Shown here: positions 1 through 40,045 of the stretch, in pieces | Layout: each line of letters begins with the position of its first letter | Numbering within the stretch: position 1 is the stretch's first letter | DNA from: Lentisphaeria bacterium | GTDB lineage: Bacteria > Verrucomicrobiota > Lentisphaeria > Victivallales > Victivallaceae | DNA: 57,168 nucleotides | Assembly (NCBI GenBank): GCA_017504435.1 | Contig: JAFVRD010000046.1 | Span: forward strand, 1 to 57,168 | Reading direction: 5' to 3' | Made by a program: the position numbers and the translations under genes | The notes under the pieces: generated by a model | Database searches by the model: none | What the model saw: the letters and a program-made list of their open reading frames with translations, nothing else | What the model was told of the DNA's origin: nothing

Positions 1-3000
1 CACTGCATCTACCAAGACATGGGCGTTTTTACGGGCATGAGCACCGCCGAAAACGCCGTCATTGACTGTACCGCCGGAGAGGACAACTTCAGATTTGGCG
101 ACACGAAGTTCAACAGTATCAGCATCAACATCACCGATACCATAAGCGTAACCGGCACCGTAGATGCGGTCGGCGAATTCGCCGCCGGAAACGGTGACCG
201 TGACTGTCCCCATGTCAGCCGATTCAGTTTTGACCAGCGCGCCGCCGACAAAGAATTTGCTGAACTTACCGCCCTGAACTTCGGTATTCACATTTCCGGA
301 TGTAAGATCAGTACCGACGAAAACAGCTTTGATTTCACCGCCGGTGATGAGGCTTTCGGAAGTGTGATTGATTTTGTTTTCAGTGATGACATCTCCGGCT
401 GAAATGGTGGCTTTTTCTTTCAGCACCAGATCCGTGCCGACCAGAACCGCTTCAAGTTTGTTATCGGCATTGTTGGTAACGGTAACTGTGCCGATATCAG
501 TAATATTAGACGCAATAGTAACAGCCTGACCGGCAAACCGGTTACCGTCAACAGTGATTGCCACGTTGCTTAAACTCTGACCGGCAGCATTGAAATTAAC
601 TTTGTATGTGCCGTTGAAAGTTATTGTTGAGAGATCATCAAAACTTATGAGTGACAAATTCAGATCTTTTTCATTGTTGATAAAGATCAGATCAGCATCA
701 ACAGTTTTATATTGACCGTCACCGAGAATATTTGCCGCAAGTTGGACAGTTCCGGAGAAAGTACATTTACCGATATTCAATACTCTTTCACCGTCCTTGT
801 CTTTATTATAAATATTATTACTGACGGTAATGCTGTCTAATTTAGTGACAAATGAGGAATCTTTGATGGTGATATCAGAACCTCTTAATTCAATAGCTCC
901 GTTGATATTGCCATTGAATTCGACTCCATTTATTGTTACATTGGCACGTTTTGAAGCATTAACTTCATCATCGTTATCGTTATTGGCACCATTGTCTACT
1001 GCAGAAATGGCTTTTATGGAGTTGCCGCCGTTATCAGTAAATTTTGCATCATTGACATTGAGAGTGCCGCCGTTGAGGGCGATAACTCCGCCTTCATTTT
1101 CGGTAAATACAGCTTCTGTTACCGTATTATCAGCGGCAGTATAACCGTAAATATTTATAGTACCGCCGGTAGTGTAGATGCTGCCGTATTCATTATTCTC
1201 GACGTTGTGATTATTTTTGAAATAACCGCCGTAAATATTTGTAACACTGTCTTTACTTGAAAAAATTGCGGCACCGCGTCCGTTATACTGAACTTCGTTA
1301 CCTTTAGAATCGGTATATTTAATACCGTACTCGCAAACGTTGTCTTCAAAATTGCAGTTGATTATATTGGCAACATTGCCGTTATAGATAGCGGCACCAC
1401 CGTGACCTGCCTGCAAAAACTGTGCTGTATTACCGGTGAAAAGTGTTTTTTCAACATTAAGAACACCGCTGTTGTATATTGCACCGCCTTTACCGTTATG
1501 TGTACCATTACCAATTTTGTTATTGGCAAAAGTTGCTCCTTTTATATCAAGGTCACCACTATTATAAACACCAGCACCATAAAGATCACTTTCCGGAGCA
1601 AAACAGAAATTCTGCACATTGATATTTTCAATGGAAACATTATTTCCGGCAGCGATCTTCATGAATCGCGCAGAATTTGTACCGTCAAAAATAACTGTTT
1701 TACCGGTATCATTCTTGATGTTAAGAGGATTTGAAGCAGAAAATGAATTTTCTGCAACATTAAACATTTCTTCAACATCAATAATCAGAGATTCATTTTC
1801 CGGAAGAACATTGAATACGATATTTGAAACTTCACCGGCGGTAATCGCAGCTTTTGCGGCGGTAAATGTTTCGCTGTCTTTAACAATTATATTCAGCGTC
1901 TTTGCAACCAGAGCGTTATTTTCAAAAACGATATCAAATGTCCTCAATCCGTCACTGACCTGACTGAATGTGTTATTTCCAATGTTGGAAATACCTGACA
2001 TCAATGTCCGTCCGGAACCGATAGATGAAGTATCGACAGACAGATCAACTCCGGTAAGATCCCAATTGCTGACTGTGACGGTTTTATCACCTTTGAGCAA
2101 TATTTTATTATTACCGGCAAATACCATATTGCTGACGCTGATATCTGTACTGTTATCAAACGTAATATTGGCACCGTTGGTAACAGTAATCGATGCTTTG
2201 CTGCCTGAGCTGGTAACATCAGCATTCAACTCGATATTTCCGGAAAGATTAAGTTTGCCTTCAACAAAAACCGTATCGGTGTCAGTCTTAAAAGTACCGC
2301 CATTGAAATTCAACGTCGCATCTGAGGTCACATAAATCGCACCGCCATAAACAGCAGCAGTATTGCCGGAGAAAAAGTTGCTGCTCATATTGAGCGTGCC
2401 GCCATCTACAAAAATCGCACCGCCACATCCGTAATTTGGACTTGCTGCTCCGGTGGCAACATTGTTTATGAATTGAGAATTATCAATAGTCTGCTCATTA
2501 TTCCATAAAAATGAATTATTTTTTCCGGAAGAATATATCGCACCGCCGTTGCCTTTGGCTGTATTACCGGTAAAAACAGCATCATTTACATGGTATGTTC
2601 CACCTGCTATGATCGCACCGCCATGAACATCGGTACTGTTTTTTATGAAATCTGCACCGTTTACGACTAAATCTGCCACATAATAATCACCATTTCCAAT
2701 ATTCGGTATGAGTGAAGGAGTCTTACTCGTATCGGCACAGGAAGCATCCATGGTGGGGAATTTGGAATTATTTTTGAAATCATTGATAGTTTTTCCGGCT
2801 TCGGCAACAGCTTCTGCTTCAGTATCAAAAGACCGTTCACCGTAATAAAGAATATCACTGTCGAGGTAGAAACATTCACTGACATATTTACCGCTGGTTT
2901 CATCAAGTCCGATATATTTACCGGTTTTGGCAGTATCGACTGCTGAACTGTCGACTTTCGTATATGCTGTATTCAGAGCGTTACCGTCCACGATCTTCTT

Positions 3001-3894
3001 TGCTTCTGTATAACCGACAACGTGAGTGTCACCAAAATACAAAATACCCTTGGTAACATAATAACCTTTTGCATACCATTTGTCAACATGGCTGATCGCG
3101 CCGCCATCAGATTTGGCAGAATTGCTGTCAAAAACTGTCCGGGTACCATTTTCTGAATTGAATTCCATTTCCATAAGGTTATATGCCGCACCGCCATCTT
3201 CGTTAGCGACGTTTCCTGTAAAAGTCGCACCGGTTACTTTTATACAGCCGCGGGTATTTCCAATAGCGATCGCACCGCCGGTATTGGCTGTATTGCCGTA
3301 AAAAATCATCTTATCATCTTCAGTGCCGGAAATAGTGATGACGTTGATCTCCTGACTTGATACCGCACCACCATGAGTCTTGGTAGCATTTTGGATGAAA
3401 GTTGAGCCGGAAATAATTATATTCCCGGTAGTGTTTGAATGAATACCTGCTGAATATTGGGTTGTGGTATTTCCTGAAAAAGTTGAACCGGTAATATTCA
3501 ATCTTCCACTGCTGGAAACCAGAAGTGTACCGCGGCAAACACCGTTGTTATCATAAAAAACAGTATCCTGAATGTTAGCATTTCCGGTTACCCGCATTAC
3601 CACTGTCCAGTTTGCAGTTTTAACACCGGCAATCGCCTTGGTAATAACAGTATTTGAAAAAGTGCAGCCTTTTATGCCGAAAGTACCGGCAAGGGATATC
3701 AATGGAGTATCAGAGTTTTTGGAAACATCTGTGGCATCCATTTTGTCGACCCAAATGTTTTCAATAGCATAATTGCCGCCATATGAACCTCTGCCTATAG
3801 TATTACCGGCGACATCTCCTGTCCAGGTATTGCCGTTGACAGCAATATTATCAACATTTTCGGGACTGTAAAGTTTGGAATTTTCGTATGCCAT
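1..3894 (-). CDS. Giant Pmp-like beta-helix surface protein (C-terminus outside window)
   Basis: The reading frame is open for 1298 codons from ATG at 3894 to the window edge, so the C-terminus is missing. The start is set by GAGGTG seven bases upstream and an in-frame TGA at 3906-3904. The product is built of imperfect beta-helix repeats rich in GGAI/GGAV/GGAA and FxxN (FSGN, FIQN, FTGN, FKNN, FEDN, FANN), the tetrapeptides that define chlamydial polymorphic membrane proteins. Towards the window edge (from about residue 1150) the repeat changes to a valine- and glycine-rich type with VSGGEF and VFGGAH. No N-terminal signal peptide is visible: the protein begins MAYENSKLYSPENVDN. Export would therefore need a C-terminal signal, for example type I secretion, which cannot be seen here. 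A role as surface adhesin or surface-layer protein is inferred from architecture only. Confidence 0.8.
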   Translation of the reverse strand, partial: MAYENSKLYSPENVDNIAVNGNTWTGDVAGNTIGRGSYGGNYAIENIWVDKMDATDVSKNSDTPLISLAGTFGIKGCTFSNTVITKAIAGVKTANWTVVMRVTGNANIQDTVFYDNNGVCRGTLLVSSSGRLNITGSTFSGNTTTQYSAGIHSNTTGNIIISGSTFIQNATKTHGGAVSSQEINVITISGTEDDKMIFYGNTANTGGAIAIGNTRGCIKVTGATFTGNVANEDGGAAYNLMEMEFNSENGTRTVFDSNSAKSDGGAISHVDKWYAKGYYVTKGILYFGDTHVVGYTEAKKIVDGNALNTAYTKVDSSAVDTAKTGKYIGLDETSGKYVSECFYLDSDILYYGERSFDTEAEAVAEAGKTINDFKNNSKFPTMDASCADTSKTPSLIPNIGNGDYYVADLVVNGADFIKNSTDVHGGAIIAGGTYHVNDAVFTGNTAKGNGGAIYSSGKNNSFLWNNEQTIDNSQFINNVATGAASPNYGCGGAIFVDGGTLNMSSNFFSGNTAAVYGGAIYVTSDATLNFNGGTFKTDTDTVFVEGKLNLSGNIELNADVTSSGSKASITVTNGANITFDNSTDISVSNMVFAGNNKILLKGDKTVTVSNWDLTGVDLSVDTSSIGSGRTLMSGISNIGNNTFSQVSDGLRTFDIVFENNALVAKTLNIIVKDSETFTAAKAAITAGEVSNIVFNVLPENESLIIDVEEMFNVAENSFSASNPLNIKNDTGKTVIFDGTNSARFMKIAAGNNVSIENINVQNFCFAPESDLYGAGVYNSGDLDIKGATFANNKIGNGTHNGKGGAIYNSGVLNVEKTLFTGNTAQFLQAGHGGAAIYNGNVANIINCNFEDNVCEYGIKYTDSKGNEVQYNGRGAAIFSSKDSVTNIYGGYFKNNHNVENNEYGSIYTTGGTINIYGYTAADNTVTEAVFTENEGGVIALNGGTLNVNDAKFTDNGGNSIKAISAVDNGANNDNDDEVNASKRANVTINGVEFNGNINGAIELRGSDITIKDSSFVTKLDSITVSNNIYNKDKDGERVLNIGKCTFSGTVQLAANILGDGQYKTVDADLIFINNEKDLNLSLISFDDLSTITFNGTYKVNFNAAGQSLSNVAITVDGNRFAGQAVTIASNITDIGTVTVTNNADNKLEAVLVGTDLVLKEKATISAGDVITENKINHTSESLITGGEIKAVFVGTDLTSGNVNTEVQGGKFSKFFVGGALVKTESADMGTVTVTVSGGEFADRIYGAGYAYGIGDVDADTVELRVAKSEVVLSGGTVNDGVFGGAHARKNAHVLVDAV

Positions 3895-3938
3895 TAATAC
3901 ACCTCACTTTTTATATAAAAAAAACAAATACTGAGAAT

Positions 3939-3967
3939 ATTATATCACATAAATAAATACATGTCAA
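3939..3967 (-). promoter_or_regulatory. Perfect sigma-70 consensus promoter of the giant beta-helix gene
   Basis: On the minus strand TTGACA (3967-3962) and TATAAT (3944-3939) are separated by exactly 17 bases. The start codon at 3894 lies about 45 bases downstream of the -10 box. Both hexamers match consensus completely, the strongest promoter seen in the window, which suggests high or sharply regulated expression. Confidence 0.85.
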
Positions 3968-4386: not shown

Positions 4387-5115
4387 TCAAAGAACTTTTG
4401 AAAAAAATTCTTTTACTCTGGGGTTGACCGGATTTTCAATGACCGTTTCCGGAGTACCGGAAGTGATGATCTGACCTTGATCCATAAAAATTATCCGGTC
4501 GGCTACTCCGGCAGCAAAACCGATCTCATGAGTAACTACAGCCATAGTCATGCCGTCATTAGCCAATTCTTTCATCAGAGTAAGCACCTCTCCGACCATT
4601 TCCGGATCCAGTGCCGAAGTAGGTTCATCAAAAAGCAATACATCCGGATTCATGGCAAGTGCGCGAATGATGGCAACACGTTGTTTCTGCCCTCCGGAAA
4701 GCTGATTGGGGTAGGAGTTGCGTTTATCGTACAATCCGATCCTTTTCAGCAGCAAGTCAGCTGTTTTTGAGGCTTCTTTTGCTGTTGCCAGCTCAGTTTT
4801 TACCGGAGCAAGTACGATATTGTCGTGGATCGTCATATTTGGAAACAGATTAAAGTGCTGAAATACCATTCCAAGTTGTTGACGGAATTTATTTATATTG
4901 AGTTTTTCAACATCCTGACCTTTGAAGAAAATTTTGCCGCCGCTGGGAGTTTCCAGTAAATTCAAACAGCGCAGAAATGTACTTTTACCGGAACCTGACG
5001 GACCGACAATAAATACCGCTTCACCGCGTTTGATATCGGTACTGACATTGTTAACCGCAGTTACATGGGAAAATTTTTTGGTCAGATTACGGATCTCAAA
5101 AATATTTTCATTCAT
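4387..5115 (-). CDS. Polar amino-acid ABC transporter ATP-binding protein (GlnQ/ArtP type)
   Basis: This is the cytoplasmic ATPase that powers amino-acid uptake by the permease encoded just upstream. At 242 residues it has normal length for the family. It has Walker [10 protein letters not shown] (38-46), Q-loop VFQHFNLFP (about 84-92), signature LSGGQ (139-143), Walker B LLFDEP with catalytic E164, and switch H196. The start overlaps the end of the binding-protein/permease gene by eight bases, implying translational coupling. The fold and family are clear, but the substrate (glutamine, arginine, cystine or other) cannot be read from the sequence. Confidence 0.93.
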
Positions 5116-6559
5116 TTTTTTTCAACCTTTTTTCCAATATTCCCAACATGTAACTCAAAAATATCACTACTGCCAGATAGATCAACGCAACTGCTATCAA
5201 CGGCAGAAAAGCATCATAAGTCTGACTGCGGATAATATCTCCGCCTTTGGTAAGATCCTGCAAAGCAATATATCCTGATACACTGGTTTCCTTAAGCAGA
5301 ACTATGAATTCATTTCCGAGCGCAGGCAGCACATTTTTGAATGCCTGAGGCAGAATGATGGATTTCATACTCTGAATGTAGGACAACCCCAGACTTCTGC
5401 CGGCTTCCATCTGACCTTTATCAACAGCCATGATGCCGCCGCGGATGATTTCCGCCACATACGCTCCGGAATTTATTCCGAATGCCACTATCGCCACCAG
5501 CACCTTGTCCACGTTTACCGAACTGAAAATAACAAAGTAAATTATCATCAGCTGTACCACCACCGGAGTTCCGCGGATGACGGTCAGATAAATTTTACAG
5601 AGCATATCGGCAATTTTCAGTTTGCCGGTCTGATCGGCACAACTGCGGATGACTGCCACTGTAAAACCGATGATAATACCGAGAATAACGGCAAAAAATG
5701 TTACTTCAAGGGTGACAATAAAACCTTTTACCAAATACATGTAACGGTTGTTTTTGGCAAAATTGGTCTGAAATGAATCTTTTATGCGTTCCAAAAATGT
5801 TTTATTGTCTGAAATTGCGCCATTCTGAGAAGATTCTGAATTTATTTCTTTATAATGTTTGATAATACTTTCCAGTTCTCCGGATTGCTGCATTTTGATC
5901 AATTCAGTATTGATTTTTTTCAGCAGTTCCGGATTGTCTTTTGAAACCGCAAAAGCGTATTCCTCGTAAGTCAGCGGTTTTTTCAGCAGTTTCAATCCAG
6001 GATTCCTTGAAACATAAACTTTCGCAGGTTCACTGTCGATAACCACTGCATCAAGTTTACCGGCAATGAGAGCAGCTACCGCAGTCGGAGCTTCTTTATA
6101 ACGTTCCGGTTCGCCTATATTTTCAGTAACGTAACTGTCTCCGGTAGTACCGTGCTGCACACCGATACGCTTTTTCATGAGATCGGCGGCAGATTTTATT
6201 GGTGAATCATTTTTAACGATGATCAGCTGTTCTGCTATGACGTAAGGTGTTGTAAAATCAACTTTCTTTTTCCGTTCTTCAGTGACCGTGATCCCGGATG
6301 CGGCAATATCAGCTTTACCGCTTTGTACAGCAGCCAGAACAGAATCAAAACTCATATCCTGAATTTCCACAGAATATCCCAGACGTTCCGATATTCTGAT
6401 AATGATTTCCGGATCAATACCATCTATTTTATCTCCGGAAACATATTCATAAGGAGGAAATGTGGCAGTAGTTACCATCACCAGTTTTTTTGCAGAATCT
6501 TCACATCCGTAAAAAAACAGTGTTGCCACAGTCAATAAAATTGTGCTGAATAATCTCAT
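5108..6559 (-). CDS. Fused amino-acid-binding lipoprotein and ABC permease
   Basis: One polypeptide joins a periplasmic substrate-binding domain to its membrane permease. A lipoprotein signal ends at FFYGC with Cys19. Residues about 27-250 are an SBP_bac_3 domain ([13 protein letters not shown] near the start, [20 protein letters not shown] in the middle). Residues about 275-480 are a HisM/GlnP-type permease with several membrane spans and the EAA loop [20 protein letters not shown]. Fusions of this kind are known from the GlnPQ importers of lactic acid bacteria; most diderms keep the two parts separate. No strong ribosome site precedes ATG 6559. It forms a two-gene operon with the ATPase at 4387-5115. 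The fusion is seen directly, while ligand identity is unknown. Confidence 0.92.
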
Positions 6560-20751: not shown

Positions 20752-23700
20752 TTATATTTCAACTTCATCGTATCTGCCCATTCCGGCAACCGGAAAACCA
20801 AGTTCCACTTTGCCGTATTTTTCTACATCCCGGAAGCCAAGACCGGATTCGGCACGTACCGGACCCCATGCTCCGCGATCACCGTTTTTACCGATACGGC
20901 TGCGGCAGAAATTCGCCCGCAGCGAAACTCCCGGTACCGCATCTTTAACATTCAAATCCGTCCACGGGATTTTTGCCATGACCATATAGCCGCCGTCTGC
21001 AAGCGGCGCAAAACGGATATTTGCATAACTGAAACAGCCCTCCGGAAGAGCGATCGATCTGCCTTTGCCGTCTACACACAACTGATACACTTTTTTATCC
21101 GGAGTTTCCAGAAAAATATCTACACAGTCATTGGCGTAAGGCAATTTTGCCGGTGCCTGCACTGCCCGTGCTGTTTCGTGGGCAAAAAGGGCAACATACA
21201 AGGCATTGTCATCATAACTCAAATATCCGGTCGTGCGCTGTGTCAGTTCCTCCGTTGCGCCGTAGGGCTGCAAAGAGGTGATCTTTGCCCATTTCCCCAA
21301 TGCGGTTTCGGTCAATTTTTCCGGCACCTGCCGGAGTTTGGGCAGATAAAGTGCCGCCGGGATATTTCCGGCTTGTTTCGGGTCGCCGACATTTTTTCCG
21401 GCAACAAAATCTCCGGTATTGCGGTCGTTGAATTTCACAATGGCAAGTTTGAACATCCGGTTGGCAAGGATGTGGTTGTTTCCGGCGGCAAAAATCACTG
21501 TGCCGTCCCATCCCTCCGGAGCGTATTTTTGCAAATCCAGTGAGAATACGGTTTCCGGACGCTCCAGAAAATCTCCCAACCGGATGTAGAGATCCTGTTT
21601 TTTGCCGGTTCCCCAGCTGGGAAAACGGTTTTCCAGATAACGCGTGCCGATGCCCCATGAGAAAATCACCCGCTTGGTGTATTTGCCGTTGACCCGGTAA
21701 TCGACCACGATACCGGAGAAGTCGACTTTGGATTTCTCCCCGCCGAGCCAGACGTGCGAACCGGCTTCGAAAAAGGATTGCGCCTGCAGGAAGTTATGGG
21801 AAAGTTTCAGCTGAATACATTTTGCTCCGCTGAATTCAAATCCGCCGTAGTGATTGATGTCCAGCGTATCGTTGCGCCGGGTGGTTCCGGCGGTGATGGT
21901 CAACGTTGCGGGGTCAGCTGCCGCCACGACCGGAGGCAGATCGCGCTGCAGATTACGCAGTTCCCGGTGGCCGCTGAGAAAACTTCCGGCACGGTGAATT
22001 GTGACTCCATCTTTGGTGGTATTGACACTCTGCCAGTCAATTTTGGGCTGGATATAAGGATTCATACGGTGCTGAACCGCACTGTTTTTGCCTCCGGCAA
22101 GTGTTATTTCAGCACCACCGGTCAAAGTTCCGGCCCGACGGATACGGTATTTGCCGTTCCGGAAGTGTTCCGGCAGCAGCAGCGGCGATTTGCCGGTCAG
22201 ACAGCTGAAGCCGTCTTTTTCAATAACATAAAGTCCGCCGTTGTCATTTTTGACCGTCAGGGTTCTGCCATTGCGTTCAATTTGCAGAGCAGTTCCCGCC
22301 GGTTCCGCCGGACGGGGGATCCGCCGGTAACTCAGCGAATGGGTTCCGGCAGGAACGGTGATTTTTTGCATCAACAGCCCGTTGATATCACACCATTGAG
22401 CTGAAACCGGGCTGCCGTTCAGTTGAATGTCCGAGAATACCGCCGCTTTGTCGCCCAGCAGGATTTCCACACTGTCACGGGATGAAACGATTTTGTTTCC
22501 GGAAATTTCCACCCCTTTGCGTTTGGTAAACATATAAGTTCCCGGCTGGCCATTTACCGCATAAATTACCGCCGGTGACGGCACTATCACATACTGCACC
22601 AGATCATCTTTGCCGACGTTTTTGAATGTGTGTTTGAAAGTACCGTTGTTTTCACCGGAATAAACCAGTTCCGGTACGGCACTGCTCAAATTGAACCAGC
22701 GGTATTGACGGTAGCTGCTGCGGATCTCTTTGTCACTTAAAATATAGTTGAGAGCCGTTCCCTGCGGATAGCGGGTGCGGTATGCCCAGATATTAAGTTT
22801 CGTACCTGCAGGATAAGCGGAAAAACCGAGGTCGATGCTGACCGGCAGATCGGCAGTTTTGCCGGTACGGTTGATAAAAGAAAGTACCGTATCATTGGAG
22901 TTTACCCGGCGAACGGTATACGATTCCCAGGTGCTTCGGGGATCGCGTTTCCAGTCCGGCGTGTAATTGATCTGCTGCGGCAGTGTTTTGCCCATTTCAT
23001 ACGCTGACCGCATCAGCGTTACCGAACCGGGATTATTTCTGGCAATGTCGCCCAGCACCGGAACCCAGCCGTTGGCAAGAACCCTGCCGAAGTAGTTCGG
23101 AAATTCATTCATGTAGAGCAGAGCCATCCGGCTGCCCGGACGCATTTTGGAAACCATTTCCAAACCCAGCGCGACTCCGGCGAAATCCCGCCATGCGCTG
23201 CTTTGCAGCATCCGGTTTGGACACTCCATATAGTTGATATCTGCATAAGGATTGCCGCTGCCGTTGAAGTAAACGAATTGACCGTTGGCAAGCACGTTGC
23301 GGCGGATACCGTCCCATAACGGAACGCTGTGGTCATCGCGGATGAGTTCTCCCGCCTGCCAGTTGATGGTATTCTGATATTGAGCTTCATCCTGATAGAC
23401 AAAGCCGGTACCGAAATTTTTGCCCATGCCGCAGACAGAATCAATGATGTATTTGCGTACTTCCGGACGGTTGATCATCGTCTGATAGTTGGGCAGAAGA
23501 CCGGGGAAATGGATCTCTTTGTCCCCGGCACGGTCAAATTGACGGAAATATTCCGGGTGTTCCTTGAAAATCGGCGAGTGCTCCGCCGCCGCGACGGTAA
23601 TGGTATGGAAACCGACTTTCACCCGCGGGGTAACTGCTTTCATCCCGTCGATGTAAGTACGGATCTCATCGCCGGTGACAAAACCTCCGGCATTGCCGTT

Positions 23701-24684
23701 GAAGCCGTCTTCCCAGCGGTAATCTGCCCAATCCGTGGAGATCATAGTTTTGCAGATGATCATACCTTCATCGGAAATTTCGCTCAAAAATTTAAGATAC
23801 GGTTCATGTCCCCAGTTGTTTTCCACAAACACATCAAGCATGCCCGGATATGCTGCCGGAATTCCGGCATACGCCGCGGCAAAATCGGGATCTTTAGCGT
23901 AAACATTGTCAAAAAAGTCAAACAGATCACCGTTGAAAAAGACCACCTGATCCGCGTAGAAGAATTTACCTTTTTTGGCTGCCAGATCAAATGTCCCCAG
24001 TGCCATGCGCCAGCCGTCGGGCAGATAGTAGAGCCGGTCACTCTTTTCCCGGTAGCTGTTGATCGTGGACTGCCACCACGGAAAAACGACGGTATTATTG
24101 AGTTTCACCCGCAGATGGGCAAAACTGCCCTGTTTTTTATCGGGATTTATAAGTACCATGCCTTTACTGGACTGCACGTAACTTTCCACCCTGGAAGGCT
24201 GTTTGACTTGCGGAGCAGGAATAAACGGCCCCAGATAACCGGCTCCGAAATAGTAACTTTGCTGTTGAAATTCTTTTGCAAAGCGGCTGTCGGTAAATAC
24301 CTGCAGGAATTTTATCTCATCTGCCGCATTGGTAAATGTGAATTCCCGGCGCAGACCGTCATTGACGATCCGGTAATTTTTTTCAATACCGAATCCCGGC
24401 AGCCGGGGATTGGCGCACCGGTAAGTGACAGCATTGGGGGAATGTTTGACCTTTTGAACGGTATCGGTACGGTCGGAGGCTTTGCGGTCACCGGAATTTG
24501 CCAGCAGAAAATAGCGGTTGCTTACGGAAGTAATCACTTTTTTACCATCAGATTTGCGTTCGATAGCGGTGATATTGCCGGTGCGGTCATCAATATGGTA
24601 ACGCGCCACAGAGCTCTCCAGCACCGCTGCATGCAAAAGTGCGATACCGCTGCAAACACTCAACCATAAAAGATGTTTTTTCAT
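20752..24684 (-). CDS. Large secreted glycosidase-like protein with CBM9-like C-terminus
   Basis: The product has 1310 residues, with a signal peptide (MKKHLLWLSVCSGIALLHAA) and start 24684 set by GGAGGG. An N-terminal beta-sandwich (about 25-270) resembles those that precede retaining glycosidase barrels. A TIM-barrel-like part follows (about 280-620; DVFVENNWGHEP, TMISTDWADYRW, GFVYQDEAQYQN, FVYFNGSGNPYAD). Then come Ig-like domains and a CBM9-like sugar-binding domain (about 1110-1290; DDNALYVALFAHE, DCVDIFLE, MVMAKIPWTDL). The overall plan suggests an extracellular or periplasmic polysaccharide-active enzyme. No CAZy family could be assigned and the catalytic acids are not certain; D or E in YQDEAQ is a candidate. 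It lies between the AraC regulator and the pseudopilin. Confidence 0.75.
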   Translation of the reverse strand: MKKHLLWLSVCSGIALLHAAVLESSVARYHIDDRTGNITAIERKSDGKKVITSVSNRYFLLANSGDRKASDRTDTVQKVKHSPNAVTYRCANPRLPGFGIEKNYRIVNDGLRREFTFTNAADEIKFLQVFTDSRFAKEFQQQSYYFGAGYLGPFIPAPQVKQPSRVESYVQSSKGMVLINPDKKQGSFAHLRVKLNNTVVFPWWQSTINSYREKSDRLYYLPDGWRMALGTFDLAAKKGKFFYADQVVFFNGDLFDFFDNVYAKDPDFAAAYAGIPAAYPGMLDVFVENNWGHEPYLKFLSEISDEGMIICKTMISTDWADYRWEDGFNGNAGGFVTGDEIRTYIDGMKAVTPRVKVGFHTITVAAAEHSPIFKEHPEYFRQFDRAGDKEIHFPGLLPNYQTMINRPEVRKYIIDSVCGMGKNFGTGFVYQDEAQYQNTINWQAGELIRDDHSVPLWDGIRRNVLANGQFVYFNGSGNPYADINYMECPNRMLQSSAWRDFAGVALGLEMVSKMRPGSRMALLYMNEFPNYFGRVLANGWVPVLGDIARNNPGSVTLMRSAYEMGKTLPQQINYTPDWKRDPRSTWESYTVRRVNSNDTVLSFINRTGKTADLPVSIDLGFSAYPAGTKLNIWAYRTRYPQGTALNYILSDKEIRSSYRQYRWFNLSSAVPELVYSGENNGTFKHTFKNVGKDDLVQYVIVPSPAVIYAVNGQPGTYMFTKRKGVEISGNKIVSSRDSVEILLGDKAAVFSDIQLNGSPVSAQWCDINGLLMQKITVPAGTHSLSYRRIPRPAEPAGTALQIERNGRTLTVKNDNGGLYVIEKDGFSCLTGKSPLLLPEHFRNGKYRIRRAGTLTGGAEITLAGGKNSAVQHRMNPYIQPKIDWQSVNTTKDGVTIHRAGSFLSGHRELRNLQRDLPPVVAAADPATLTITAGTTRRNDTLDINHYGGFEFSGAKCIQLKLSHNFLQAQSFFEAGSHVWLGGEKSKVDFSGIVVDYRVNGKYTKRVIFSWGIGTRYLENRFPSWGTGKKQDLYIRLGDFLERPETVFSLDLQKYAPEGWDGTVIFAAGNNHILANRMFKLAIVKFNDRNTGDFVAGKNVGDPKQAGNIPAALYLPKLRQVPEKLTETALGKWAKITSLQPYGATEELTQRTTGYLSYDDNALYVALFAHETARAVQAPAKLPYANDCVDIFLETPDKKVYQLCVDGKGRSIALPEGCFSYANIRFAPLADGGYMVMAKIPWTDLNVKDAVPGVSLRANFCRSRIGKNGDRGAWGPVRAESGLGFRDVEKYGKVELGFPVAGMGRYDEVEI

Positions 24685-24809
24685 TGTTTTCCCTCCATCC
24701 GTAAAATTTATCATAACTGTTTCATCACACTATTTTTTGTCAACAATTACTTTACTGCATAAAGTGCGGTTTAGGAATGGATGATTTTGCCAACAAATGG
24801 CTGATTTTT

Positions 24810-36599: not shown

Positions 36600-37403
36600 A
36601 TGTCTGAATATATGTTTTCCGGTATGGATTCTTACGATACTCCGGCAAATCATCCGGTGGCATCCGGTTTTAAGTGGATGCTTCGGAGCCGGTGGTATTT
36701 TTATATGCGTAACTTCGGAATATTTGTGCGTACCGGCAAATGCGCCGCCCGGGGGGAATTGGACAAGAAAAACCAGATCCGGTTTTCTTCCGGCAACATC
36801 CGGCTGGTCGAAGATTGCGGCGGCACGGTACATTTGCGCGGGTTGAACCATTTGCGTGATCTCAACGGCCAGCCGGCGGTCATTATCGGCAATCACATGA
36901 GTCTGTTGGAAACTGCGGCTTTGCATGCGATCATCCGTGAGCATGTGGATTTCTCTTTTGTTATCAAAGAATCTTTGCTGAAAGTACCTTATCTCCGGGA
37001 TATTCTTATTTCGCTCAATGCCATTCCGGTGGGTCGTACCAATCCACGTGAAGATTTGAAAACTGTCTTGACTGAAGGTAAAAAAATTCTGGAATCCGGA
37101 CGGTCCATGGTGGTATTTCCGCAATCCACCCGGACGCGTACATTTGAACCGGAACAATTCAACTCCATCGGAGTCAAACTTGCCAAAGCCGCCGGAGTGC
37201 CGGTAGTTCCAATGGCGTTGAAAACTGATATATTGGAATGCGGCAAAATAATCCGTGATCTCGGACCGGTTTTCCCGGAACGGGAGGTTCGTTTTGAATT
37301 TGGACCGGCGATGGAAATTGAAGGCAACGGTCAGGAACAGCAGAAAAAAATCATTGAATTTATCGGTAACGCCTTTACATCCTGGGAGAATGGGAAAAAG
37401 TGA
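36600..37403 (+). CDS. PlsC-like acyltransferase with variant motifs
   Basis: The product has 267 residues. It has the fold of lysophospholipid acyltransferases, which make phosphatidic acid or related lipids at the inner membrane. Motif I is H99-M-S-L-L-E104, that is HX4E instead of HX4D. Motif III reads FPQSTRT (173-179) instead of FPEGTRS. Motif II is present as AIPVGRTNPRED. The start at 36600 has GGAG eleven bases upstream. It touches lptD. The variants suggest a diverged member, and the acceptor and acyl donor are unknown. Confidence 0.82.
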   Translation: MSEYMFSGMDSYDTPANHPVASGFKWMLRSRWYFYMRNFGIFVRTGKCAARGELDKKNQIRFSSGNIRLVEDCGGTVHLRGLNHLRDLNGQPAVIIGNHMSLLETAALHAIIREHVDFSFVIKESLLKVPYLRDILISLNAIPVGRTNPREDLKTVLTEGKKILESGRSMVVFPQSTRTRTFEPEQFNSIGVKLAKAAGVPVVPMALKTDILECGKIIRDLGPVFPEREVRFEFGPAMEIEGNGQEQQKKIIEFIGNAFTSWENGKK

Positions 37404-40045
37404 TGATGTCCGGAAAAGCCAGCATATTTCGTCTGCTGCTGTGGGTTTTTGCCGCAGCGGTATGCCTGAAGTCTGTTCCGGCACACGCGATCTCCGGTGA
37501 TATCAAAAAAATTTCCATAAATGATGTCAAGCGTATGCGTGCGGATTCATGGCGGGCGGTTGGCAAGAATCTGATCATTGAAGGCGATGTGTATTTTCCG
37601 ATCGGACCTTTTGAGATTTACGCGGATCATGTGATCGTCAATACTGAGAGCAAAGATTTTGAAGCTACCGGCAATGTCCGTTTTTTTCATTGGCAGCGGG
37701 ATAAAGTTCCGGTCACGCTGAATGAACTTGCGGATGTGGAAAAGTACAATAACTCTTTCGTCCATGAAGTTACCTCATCAGTTTCTCCGCTGGGGGAACG
37801 TTCTTATCAGGCAGATGTTTCATATCAGCGCGATCAGATAACTGCTGATAAGGTCGTCGGTAATATCAATACCAGTTTTTTCAGTTTTACCAAGCCGACG
37901 ATACGTTATAATTCATTTCTCTGCCGTGCCGATTCGGCAGAAAGGACTTCAGACGGAGTGGTCGTCCTCAAAAACGGAGAACTTTCCACTTGCAGTTATT
38001 TGGAATCCAACAACGCTCACTACTCCATAACTGCTTCAGAGATCCGTCTGACTCCGCATGAGGCACGTTTTTATCAATTCAAACATGCCGATATGGATCC
38101 CGGTGACCGCTCTGTTTTGCTGGTCAACGGAGCAGTAAGAATGTATGGTGTGCCGATAATGTGGCTGCCGGTGTTTTACAAGCCTAAAGATGAATCTCCG
38201 GGACTTTGCGGTTTTCAGCAGGGACGTTCCGGGGATTGGGGATATTTTGTCCGTTTGTACCGCAGCATACACTTTACTGATGCTCCGGAAATGAAAGCCA
38301 GACTGATGTTTGACTGGTATGAAAAACGCGGATTCGGGTATGGTATCAAAGGCAGTATTGCCGCTCCGGAAAGCAATACGGAATTCTTTGCTTACTGGAT
38401 ATATGACAAAGATCCGTTAGAATCGGAAGATTATGATGACTACCGGTTGAAAGTCCGCAATTGGCGCTATGATTTCCGGCTCACCAATATTACTCACATT
38501 ACGCCCCGGCTGGATTTCAGAGGAGTCTTTGAATATCAGAGTGATCCTTATATCCGGAGAGACTTTTTTGAAAACCGCTATTGGCGCGATCCGCAGCCTG
38601 CCACATTTGCGGCATTGGAGCAGCAGTTTGATAATTTCAGTGTATCAGCCATGGCACGTATGCGGGTGAATGATTTCTATACTACGGTGGAGAAACTTCC
38701 GGAAGTCCGGATAGATGTACCCAGGCAGGAGATCCTGAATACCGGTTTTTACTACCAGGGTGATTTAAGTGCCGCATACATGCGGATGAAGTGGATAGAT
38801 TTTGATGAGCCGCCCAGACAAAGAAAAAAAGGCAAGAAACAAAACTGGTCAACGTTGTTGGACTATGAATCATTCCGGCTGGATACCACTCATTTCCTTT
38901 ACTATCCGGTTGCTACAAAATATTTCACTTTCGTGCCCAGAATCGGTTTTAAAATAACTGCTTATTCAAAGACCAGTAAAGAGGAAGTGGATTCTGAAAA
39001 CCTCATAACTATGTTTACCGCGGCTGATCCGGAGGGGTTGGGACGGCAAAAATTTGTGAATTATGATGAAAAAGGCGGCGGCAAAGTCCGGCTTGCCGGA
39101 GAGCTTGGTTTTGAATTGTCGACCAAGCTGCACAACACCTGGAACAATGTACGCAGTGCATTGTTTGATATTGATGGCATACGTCATGTGATACAGCCGT
39201 ATGTGAATTATACATTTATTCCCAAACCGACTCTGAGCCGTGACAAAATCATGTTTTTTGATGATATTGACCGGATAGATAAGCAGAACTTTTTCCGGTT
39301 GGGTGTCATCAACCGTTTACAGACCCGGGACGGCTCCAACGTATCCACTTTTTTCCGGATGGAGAATTATTGGGATATCCATCTGACCAAAGATGAGGAT
39401 GGAAATCACTTCGGCAATTTTGGAACGATCATTTCCATGCGGATCCTGAAAGGGTTAACGCTCAATACACAGTTTCTTATCAATGTCGATAATAATACGG
39501 AAGTCACCGATACCTATCGGCACGGCAGAAATGTCGGGAAAACCGGTATCGCTCAGTCTTGGTTGAATATGTTTGATTTGTCGATCAAATATTCTCCTGC
39601 GACCAATTGGGTATTTGCAGTGGGATACAATATGATCCGTCCTTATGATATCCGCAGTGCTTATTCAATGGGTTCCACGTTGACCCAGATCAACGCGACC
39701 AGTTATTTTGACCGTTACTACAATGATGTTGAAGAGTCATTTTTCCTATCTGCAACTATGCCTCTGACTCCGGATCACCGGACACTGGGAAAATTTATCA
39801 TGACTTATGATGTCCCGGAAGGCAGTATTGATTTCTTCGGATTTATGGTAGTGCGTCAGTTCCACTGCTGGCAGCTGGTTGCATCTGTCGGCATGGAGTA
39901 TGAATACGAAGATAATGACAAAGTATGGGAGCCGGAATATTCTATTTCGGCAAATCTGACCGGATTGAATCCGGCGATGAATTCAGTACAAAACGGAGTA
40001 TTGCGCAGTGCCGCAGCACTTTCCAACAGCAAATTTGAATTTTAA
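37403..40045 (+). CDS. lptD: LPS-assembly outer-membrane protein LptD
   Basis: LptD inserts lipopolysaccharide into the outer leaflet. The product has 880 residues: signal peptide ending at VPAHA (about residue 30), an N-terminal OstA/LptA-like jelly-roll (GKNLIIEGDVYFPIG, ATGNVRFFHW), then a long beta-barrel region rich in tyrosine, aromatic and alternating polar residues to the C-terminal KFEF, a typical barrel end. The first ATG (37403) overlaps the acyltransferase stop by one base (TGATG); ATG 37406 and GTG 37400 are alternatives. Its presence, with hldD next, implies an LPS-bearing outer membrane. Confidence 0.9.
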   Translation: MMSGKASIFRLLLWVFAAAVCLKSVPAHAISGDIKKISINDVKRMRADSWRAVGKNLIIEGDVYFPIGPFEIYADHVIVNTESKDFEATGNVRFFHWQRDKVPVTLNELADVEKYNNSFVHEVTSSVSPLGERSYQADVSYQRDQITADKVVGNINTSFFSFTKPTIRYNSFLCRADSAERTSDGVVVLKNGELSTCSYLESNNAHYSITASEIRLTPHEARFYQFKHADMDPGDRSVLLVNGAVRMYGVPIMWLPVFYKPKDESPGLCGFQQGRSGDWGYFVRLYRSIHFTDAPEMKARLMFDWYEKRGFGYGIKGSIAAPESNTEFFAYWIYDKDPLESEDYDDYRLKVRNWRYDFRLTNITHITPRLDFRGVFEYQSDPYIRRDFFENRYWRDPQPATFAALEQQFDNFSVSAMARMRVNDFYTTVEKLPEVRIDVPRQEILNTGFYYQGDLSAAYMRMKWIDFDEPPRQRKKGKKQNWSTLLDYESFRLDTTHFLYYPVATKYFTFVPRIGFKITAYSKTSKEEVDSENLITMFTAADPEGLGRQKFVNYDEKGGGKVRLAGELGFELSTKLHNTWNNVRSALFDIDGIRHVIQPYVNYTFIPKPTLSRDKIMFFDDIDRIDKQNFFRLGVINRLQTRDGSNVSTFFRMENYWDIHLTKDEDGNHFGNFGTIISMRILKGLTLNTQFLINVDNNTEVTDTYRHGRNVGKTGIAQSWLNMFDLSIKYSPATNWVFAVGYNMIRPYDIRSAYSMGSTLTQINATSYFDRYYNDVEESFFLSATMPLTPDHRTLGKFIMTYDVPEGSIDFFGFMVVRQFHCWQLVASVGMEYEYEDNDKVWEPEYSISANLTGLNPAMNSVQNGVLRSAAALSNSKFEF

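What the first reader, a model, noticed from the sequence alone, without database searches (positions are those of the whole stretch)
1..3894. Chlamydial Pmp-like repeats in a giant protein without signal peptide
At least fifteen FxxN and ten GGA[IVA] tetrapeptides are seen, the pattern of chlamydial polymorphic membrane proteins, here in a protein of more than 1298 residues. Chlamydial Pmps are autotransporters with signal peptides; this one starts MAYENSKLYSPEN with none. A shared PVC-phylum adhesin fold with a different export route would be notable.
Basis: partly seen in the sequence, partly recalled or inferred. Interest (0 to 1): 0.65.

Follow-up and report, generated by a model that had tools for sequence, protein, structure and literature searches.

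The report
Pmp-repeat protein family, likely type-I-secreted
A gut Lentisphaeria bacterium carries at least 18 large proteins built from the repeat known from Chlamydia surface proteins, but they appear to leave the cell by a different machine (type I secretion, with a signal at the tail end) instead of the chlamydial autotransporter route.

Summary
The minus-strand ORF 3894..1 (1298 aa, cut by the contig end) has 22 FxxN and 10 GGA[IVA] motifs, hits Chlam_PMP (E 2.3e-12), and has a real start without signal peptide, behind a perfect TTGACA-17-TATAAT promoter. It is not alone. Its Lentisphaeria MAG holds at least 18 such genes, all lacking signal peptides and all cut at contig ends, because assembly forks inside a shared C-terminal domain; several pairs of ends share exactly 141 nt. 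Relatives with intact C-termini end in a Gly-rich beta-helix and a conserved extreme C-terminal tail (..SIKFGKLA, ..NSIKFAKLA). They have no beta-barrel, and the genome has no autotransporter-barrel or T3SS/flagellar export match. It does encode an HlyB-type exporter with a dead C39-like domain, a type-I HlyD, a TolC-like protein and one RTX protein. A same-order relative fuses Pmp repeats to an RTX C-terminus. Best reading: a paralogous family of Pmp-repeat beta-helix surface or secreted proteins exported by type I secretion through the C-terminal tail. Export is inferred, not shown. The repeat outside Chlamydia was already known; the route and the multigene design appear undescribed in the papers searched. 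The 'PVC adhesin' label is not established.

The parts
3939..3967 (-). sigma-70-type promoter, TTGACA-17-TATAAT (12/12, TG before -10)
   Evidence: near-consensus sites also precede many paralogues
3902..3907 (-). ribosome-binding site GTGAGG, 7 nt before ATG
   Evidence: (read directly)
1..3894 (-). Pmp-repeat protein gene, 1298 codons visible, 3' end beyond the contig end; start ATG at 3894; no signal peptide
2110..3558 (-). first block of FxxN / GGA[IVA] repeats (residues about 113-595)
   Evidence: positions; Chlam_PMP stretches
1039..1530 (-). second block of FxxN / GGA[IVA] repeats (residues about 789-952)
   Evidence: positions
1..975 (-). start of the C-terminal Gly-rich beta-helix domain shared with paralogues (residues about 974-1298); 103 terminal nt identical in two other contigs; the domain and the C-terminal tail continue off the contig
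   Evidence: (53-77% aa identity to paralogues over this region)

Best explanation
The window gene is one of at least 18 paralogues encoding large, acidic, right-handed beta-helix proteins with variable Pmp-type repeat passengers in front and a shared Gly-rich beta-helix C-terminal domain. They lack a Sec signal and most likely leave the cell in one step through the genome's HlyB/HlyD/TolC type I secretion system. They would be recognised by a conserved, uncleaved tail at the extreme C-terminus (...[DN][SAT][IL]K[FV][AG]KLA). Outside, they would act as surface-associated or released binding proteins, the variable repeats giving variety and the constant C-terminal module giving export. Shown: repeats, missing signal peptides, family size, shared C-terminal domain and tail in relatives, transporter genes, absence of matches to an autotransporter barrel or T3SS. 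Inferred: that these proteins are the transporter's substrates, that the tail is the signal, and that this gene ends in the same tail (its own 3' end is not in the contig). Adhesion is a guess by analogy.
For: All 18 paralogue N-termini have an RBS and no hydrophobic segment (max KD10 0.09-1.66 vs 2.6-2.8 for Sec controls); pI is 4.3-4.7 and Cys 0-1.2%. Every complete relative inspected in the genus ends in such a tail at the very C-terminus, apart from G018's divergent ..WGTLA/..WDMLA ends and proteins with other C-terminal modules; the 90-aa tail profile matches 7 places in this genome and 6 same-genus relatives, and none of 16 genomes outside the genus. Those 7 tail-bearing genomes all carry a type-I HlyD over cut-off. 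Own genome: ABC exporter whose best PDB match is HlyB, E 1.1e-156, with Ser where HlyB has Tyr9, i.e. the dead catalytic Cys position; next to it HlyD TIGR01843 at 276 bits, cut-off 208.65; a TolC-like protein elsewhere. C39-like domains without the Cys go with large substrates carrying an uncleaved C-terminal signal (PMC8277102). In a same-order genome (G026) one 993-aa protein carries both Chlam_PMP (6.6e-23) and RTX nonapeptides (1.7e-11) at its C-terminus; a similar RTX C-terminus occurs in the window's genome and ends in LA, as the Pmp tails do and no other of about 150 ORFs does. No PF03797 and no FHIPEP match in the genome. The C-terminal model is a beta-helix, mean pLDDT 78, no barrel.
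Against: The window protein's own C-terminus is missing. The Pmp proteins themselves carry no RTX nonapeptides. The T1SS genes are not next to any of the Pmp genes, and they are present in genus members with no Pmp hits, so co-occurrence says little; the RTX protein could be the real substrate. The ABC exporter (657 vs 725.55 bits) and the TolC (122 vs 225) score below NCBIfam's curated cut-offs. The tail lies in a model region of low confidence (pLDDT 50-69). No secretion assay exists. One C-terminal piece of the window-type subfamily ends in GILS rather than KLA.
Confidence: 0.74

Rival explanations
1. The proteins are exported without Sec, but not by this HlyB/HlyD pair: the T1SS serves only the RTX protein, and the Pmp family uses another ABC exporter or an undescribed Lentisphaeria route.
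For: The T1SS is conserved in genus members without Pmp repeats; the Pmp proteins lack nonapeptides; other HlyD-like adaptors exist in the genome.
Against: Only one adaptor passes the type-I HlyD cut-off in this genome; a related Pmp-repeat protein ends in RTX repeats; tail and T1SS coincide in all 7 tail-bearing genomes.
Confidence: 0.14
2. They are cytoplasmic or released only by lysis, or decaying mobile repeats, not actively exported.
For: No secretion data; no signal peptide.
Against: At least 18 open frames of 487-1657 aa without stops, each with an RBS and many with near-consensus promoters; acidic, beta-helical, low-Cys composition typical of exported passengers; a conserved tail.
Confidence: 0.07
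3. They are true Pmp-type autotransporters whose signal peptide (start misplaced) and barrel were missed.
For: Repeat match to Chlam_PMP.
Against: The frame is closed three codons upstream of the ATG; all 18 N-termini lack a hydrophobic segment; complete relatives have no barrel and PF03797 has no match in the genome.
Confidence: 0.02
4. They are type III secreted, like many chlamydial effectors without cleaved signals.
For: No cleavable signal at the N-terminus.
Against: No FHIPEP (SctV/FlhA) match in a 95% complete genome.
Confidence: 0.01

Closest known systems
Chlamydial polymorphic membrane proteins (Pmp; Pfam PF02415 / TIGR01376)
   Same: Same FxxN / GGA[IVLA] repeat over curated cut-offs; beta-helical passenger; large paralogous family (up to 21 members in C. 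pneumoniae, abstract of PMC8326573).
   Different: No signal peptide, no Pfam match to a Pmp middle domain, no C-terminal autotransporter barrel.
HlyB/HlyD/TolC-type T1SS with RTX substrates
   Same: CLD-type ABC exporter, type-I HlyD, TolC family in the genome; substrates without Sec signal, acidic, low in Cys, conserved C-terminal end; RTX fusion of the repeat in a relative.
   Different: The Pmp-repeat proteins have no RTX nonapeptides; transporter and substrate genes are unlinked; at least 18 substrates for one transporter would be inferred.
T1SS giant adhesins (LapA, SiiE type)
   Same: Large repetitive surface proteins exported by T1SS (PMC8277102 for LapA and SiiE); constant C-terminus (own knowledge).
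   Different: Here the repeat is a Pmp beta-helix, and there are many paralogues of 0.9-1.7 kilo-residues instead of one giant protein.
Pmp-like beta-helix proteins outside Chlamydia (Trichomonas, Phycisphaerae, Methanobrevibacter)
   Same: Same tetrapeptide repeats in non-chlamydial organisms (PMC10715098).
   Different: The shared C-terminal tail and T1SS link were not described in the passages read.

Membership tests
Chlamydial Pmp autotransporters | FxxN / GGA[IVL] repeats, Chlam_PMP profile | tested here: met
Chlamydial Pmp autotransporters | N-terminal Sec signal peptide | tested here: not met
Chlamydial Pmp autotransporters | C-terminal beta-barrel (PF03797) | tested here: not met
   No match in complete relatives or anywhere in the genome; the C-terminal model is a beta-helix. 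The window protein's own end is not in the contig.
Chlamydial Pmp autotransporters | Pmp middle domain between repeats and barrel | tested here: not met
   Pfam scans of the window protein (E up to 10) and complete relatives list no such domain
Type I secretion substrates | No cleavable N-terminal signal | tested here: met
   18 of 18 paralogues
Type I secretion substrates | Conserved uncleaved C-terminal signal region | tested here: inconclusive
   Tail conserved at the exact C-terminus of paralogues and relatives; its signal function is untested and the window protein's own tail is not seen
Type I secretion substrates | Cognate CLD-type ABC exporter, HlyD adaptor and TolC in the genome | tested here: met
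   HlyD over cut-off, the other two below NCBIfam cut-offs but best matches are HlyB and type_I_sec_TolC
Type I secretion substrates | Secretion dependent on the T1SS | not testable with these tools
   needs an experiment
RTX proteins | GGxGxDxUx nonapeptides (PF00353) | tested here: not met
   not found in the window protein; found in the G026 relative and in one separate protein of the genome

The most novel reading that the evidence does not exclude
A lineage of gut Lentisphaeria has built a multigene surface system on the Pmp beta-helix by replacing the chlamydial signal peptide and barrel with a type I C-terminal signal. A near-identical C-terminal export module is shared, and perhaps recombined, among many variable passengers, all served by one unlinked T1SS whose exporter carries what looks like a doubled C39-like domain.
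Probability: 0.5. Interest if true: 0.68.

Novelty: new variant of a known kind. Interest (0 to 1): 0.5.

Why it matters
If true, the Pmp beta-helix is a portable module that works with two unrelated secretion machines. Pmp traits tied to the repeat could then be separated from traits tied to autotransport, and 'Chlam_PMP' annotations should not be read as autotransporters. It also predicts a simple C-terminal tail that marks a whole class of type I substrates in Lentisphaeria, and it explains a systematic assembly gap: every member found in this MAG is broken at a contig end, so annotation pipelines will miss or truncate the family.

Tried and rejected
The first genome-contig scan, with the whole window protein, found no relative; an alignment of the C-terminal domain did. 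Sequence search of the window protein against the PDB gave nothing meaningful. AlphaFold of window residues 1-640 was poor (mean pLDDT 51; only about 420-600 is a fair beta-helix) and is not used as evidence. Foldseek on the C-terminal model gave no match at E <= 0.001; VIA-align gave beta-helical passengers (UpaB Z 19.3), which says fold only; no barrel was among the rows. AF2 can be over-confident on repeat beta-solenoids (PMC11795689, abstract). T1SS presence versus Pmp number across the genus is uninformative, because the T1SS is nearly universal there. The score of the RTX tail against the Pmp tails (31 vs 28 for the next unrelated ORF) is too close to be evidence alone. Autotransporter and T3SS routes rejected. 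Literature searches joining Pmp repeats with type I secretion or Lentisphaerae found no description.

Full report
OBSERVATION. The minus-strand frame 3894..1 of the window is open for 1298 codons and runs off the contig; the window is a whole contig, C44 of the assembly. It holds 22 FxxN and 10 GGA[IVA], against shuffle means of 6.7 and 0.37, with 0 of 5000 shuffles reaching either. Chlam_PMP matches at E 2.3e-12 and POMP_repeat at 3.2e-8. The start is real: RBS GTGAGG, a perfect TTGACA-17-TATAAT with extended TG at 3967..3939, and the frame is closed three codons upstream. No signal peptide: the most hydrophobic 10 residues in the first 40 average 0.09, against 2.6 and 2.8 for two Sec-type proteins in the same window.

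FAMILY. The 2.26-Mb, 61-contig genome (95% complete) has at least 18 such genes, counted by N-termini. All 18 are open at a contig end. At least seven C-terminal pieces without an N-terminus sit at other contig ends (C12 twice, C3, C56, C43, C8, C53). Pairs of ends share exactly 141 nt (C11/C61, C28/C25, C59/C58), and the window's end shares 103 nt with two contigs. This is what an assembly graph with k = 141 gives at a shared domain (inference; a relative's contigs are named k141_). All 18 N-termini have an RBS and none has a hydrophobic segment; pI is 4.3-4.7 and Cys 0-1.2%. Many carry near-consensus promoters within 200 nt, so they look like separately transcribed genes.

ORGANISM. 

C-TERMINUS. 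Complete relatives run from the repeats into a Gly-rich domain of about 400 residues (G000 members align to it; window residues 974-1298 are its start) and end in a short conserved tail: SIKFGKLA, NSIKFAKLA, ALKVAKLA, IKFATLA and similar. Two G018 proteins end differently but alike in shape (..LKWGTLA..LTWDMLA). A 90-residue tail profile hits this genome and 6 other same-genus genomes of 40 searched, none outside the genus; the hits inspected lie at the extreme C-terminus. A second C-terminal type, the window's own subfamily, ends in GILS in the one piece seen (L181:3-521). AlphaFold of the last 480 residues of L161 gives a beta-helix (mean pLDDT 78, above 90 in the core) with a low-confidence beta cap at the tail and no barrel; nearest solved folds are beta-helical passengers. 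No domain beyond the repeat is recognised in complete relatives, except RTX repeats in L117 and FG-GAP repeats in L116.

EXPORT ROUTE. The genome gives no match to the autotransporter barrel PF03797 or to FHIPEP of T3SS and flagella. It has one type-I HlyD over the curated cut-off, beside an 853-aa ABC exporter whose best PDB match is HlyB (E 1.1e-156) with Ser at the position of HlyB's Tyr9, which replaces the catalytic Cys of C39 peptidases (PMC8277102). A TolC-like protein lies elsewhere. Such CLD exporters go with large substrates carrying uncleaved C-terminal signals (PMC8277102). In a same-order genome, L117:3537-6515 carries Chlam_PMP (6.6e-23) and C-terminal RTX nonapeptides (1.7e-11) in one protein. 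The window's genome has one RTX protein with a visibly similar C-terminal part, ending in ...MLA; among 155 ORFs examined it is the only non-Pmp one ending in LA. This links the repeat, the RTX tail and the T1SS, but indirectly.

WHAT IS SHOWN AND WHAT IS INFERRED. Shown: the repeats, the lack of signal peptides, the size of the family, the shared domain and tail, the transporter genes, the absence of barrel and T3SS matches. Inferred: that the Pmp proteins are T1SS substrates, that the tail is the signal, that the window protein ends like its relatives, and that the proteins work outside the cell. Adhesion is an analogy to chlamydial Pmps; one study argues the motifs are buried structural elements and not adhesion sites (PMC10715098).

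KNOWN AND NEW. Pmp repeats outside Chlamydia are known (over 100 species; PMC10715098), so 'shared PVC adhesin' is not the right frame. By the membership test this is not a Pmp autotransporter: the repeat is met, signal peptide and barrel are not. It works most like a T1SS surface protein. I found no paper joining Pmp repeats to type I secretion or describing this Lentisphaeria family, within a library that lacks most subscription journals.

Noticed in passing
L130:8403-10964 (-), G000:C40; also L184, L187, L188, L182: The T1SS ABC exporters of this genus have an extra N-terminal stretch of about 140 residues that by eye resembles a second, degenerate C39-like domain before the usual one; the catalytic Cys position is Ser or Thr in the usual copy.
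   Followed up: partly
L117:3537-6515 (-), G026:C22: One protein fuses Pmp repeats to C-terminal RTX nonapeptides; a neighbouring gene starts MGKKRNKVEIFKLEDRVLFEAG, an LEPR-XLL-like start (name from memory).
   Followed up: partly
L116:1932-5417 (-), G016:C71: A Pmp-repeat protein without signal peptide ends in FG-GAP repeats, a third kind of C-terminal module in the same genus.
   Followed up: no
window 5108..6559 (-): By eye, an amino-acid ABC transporter with solute-binding domain and permease fused in one 483-aa protein, with its ATPase next door (4387..5115).
   Followed up: no
window 20752..24714 (-) and 37400..40045 (+): Two large ORFs (1320 and 881 aa) with no Pfam match at E <= 1e-5.
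   Followed up: no
L181:3-521 (+), G000:C53: C-terminal piece of the window-type subfamily ends in AIKYGILS, not KLA, so the tail has at least two variants in one genome.
   Followed up: partly
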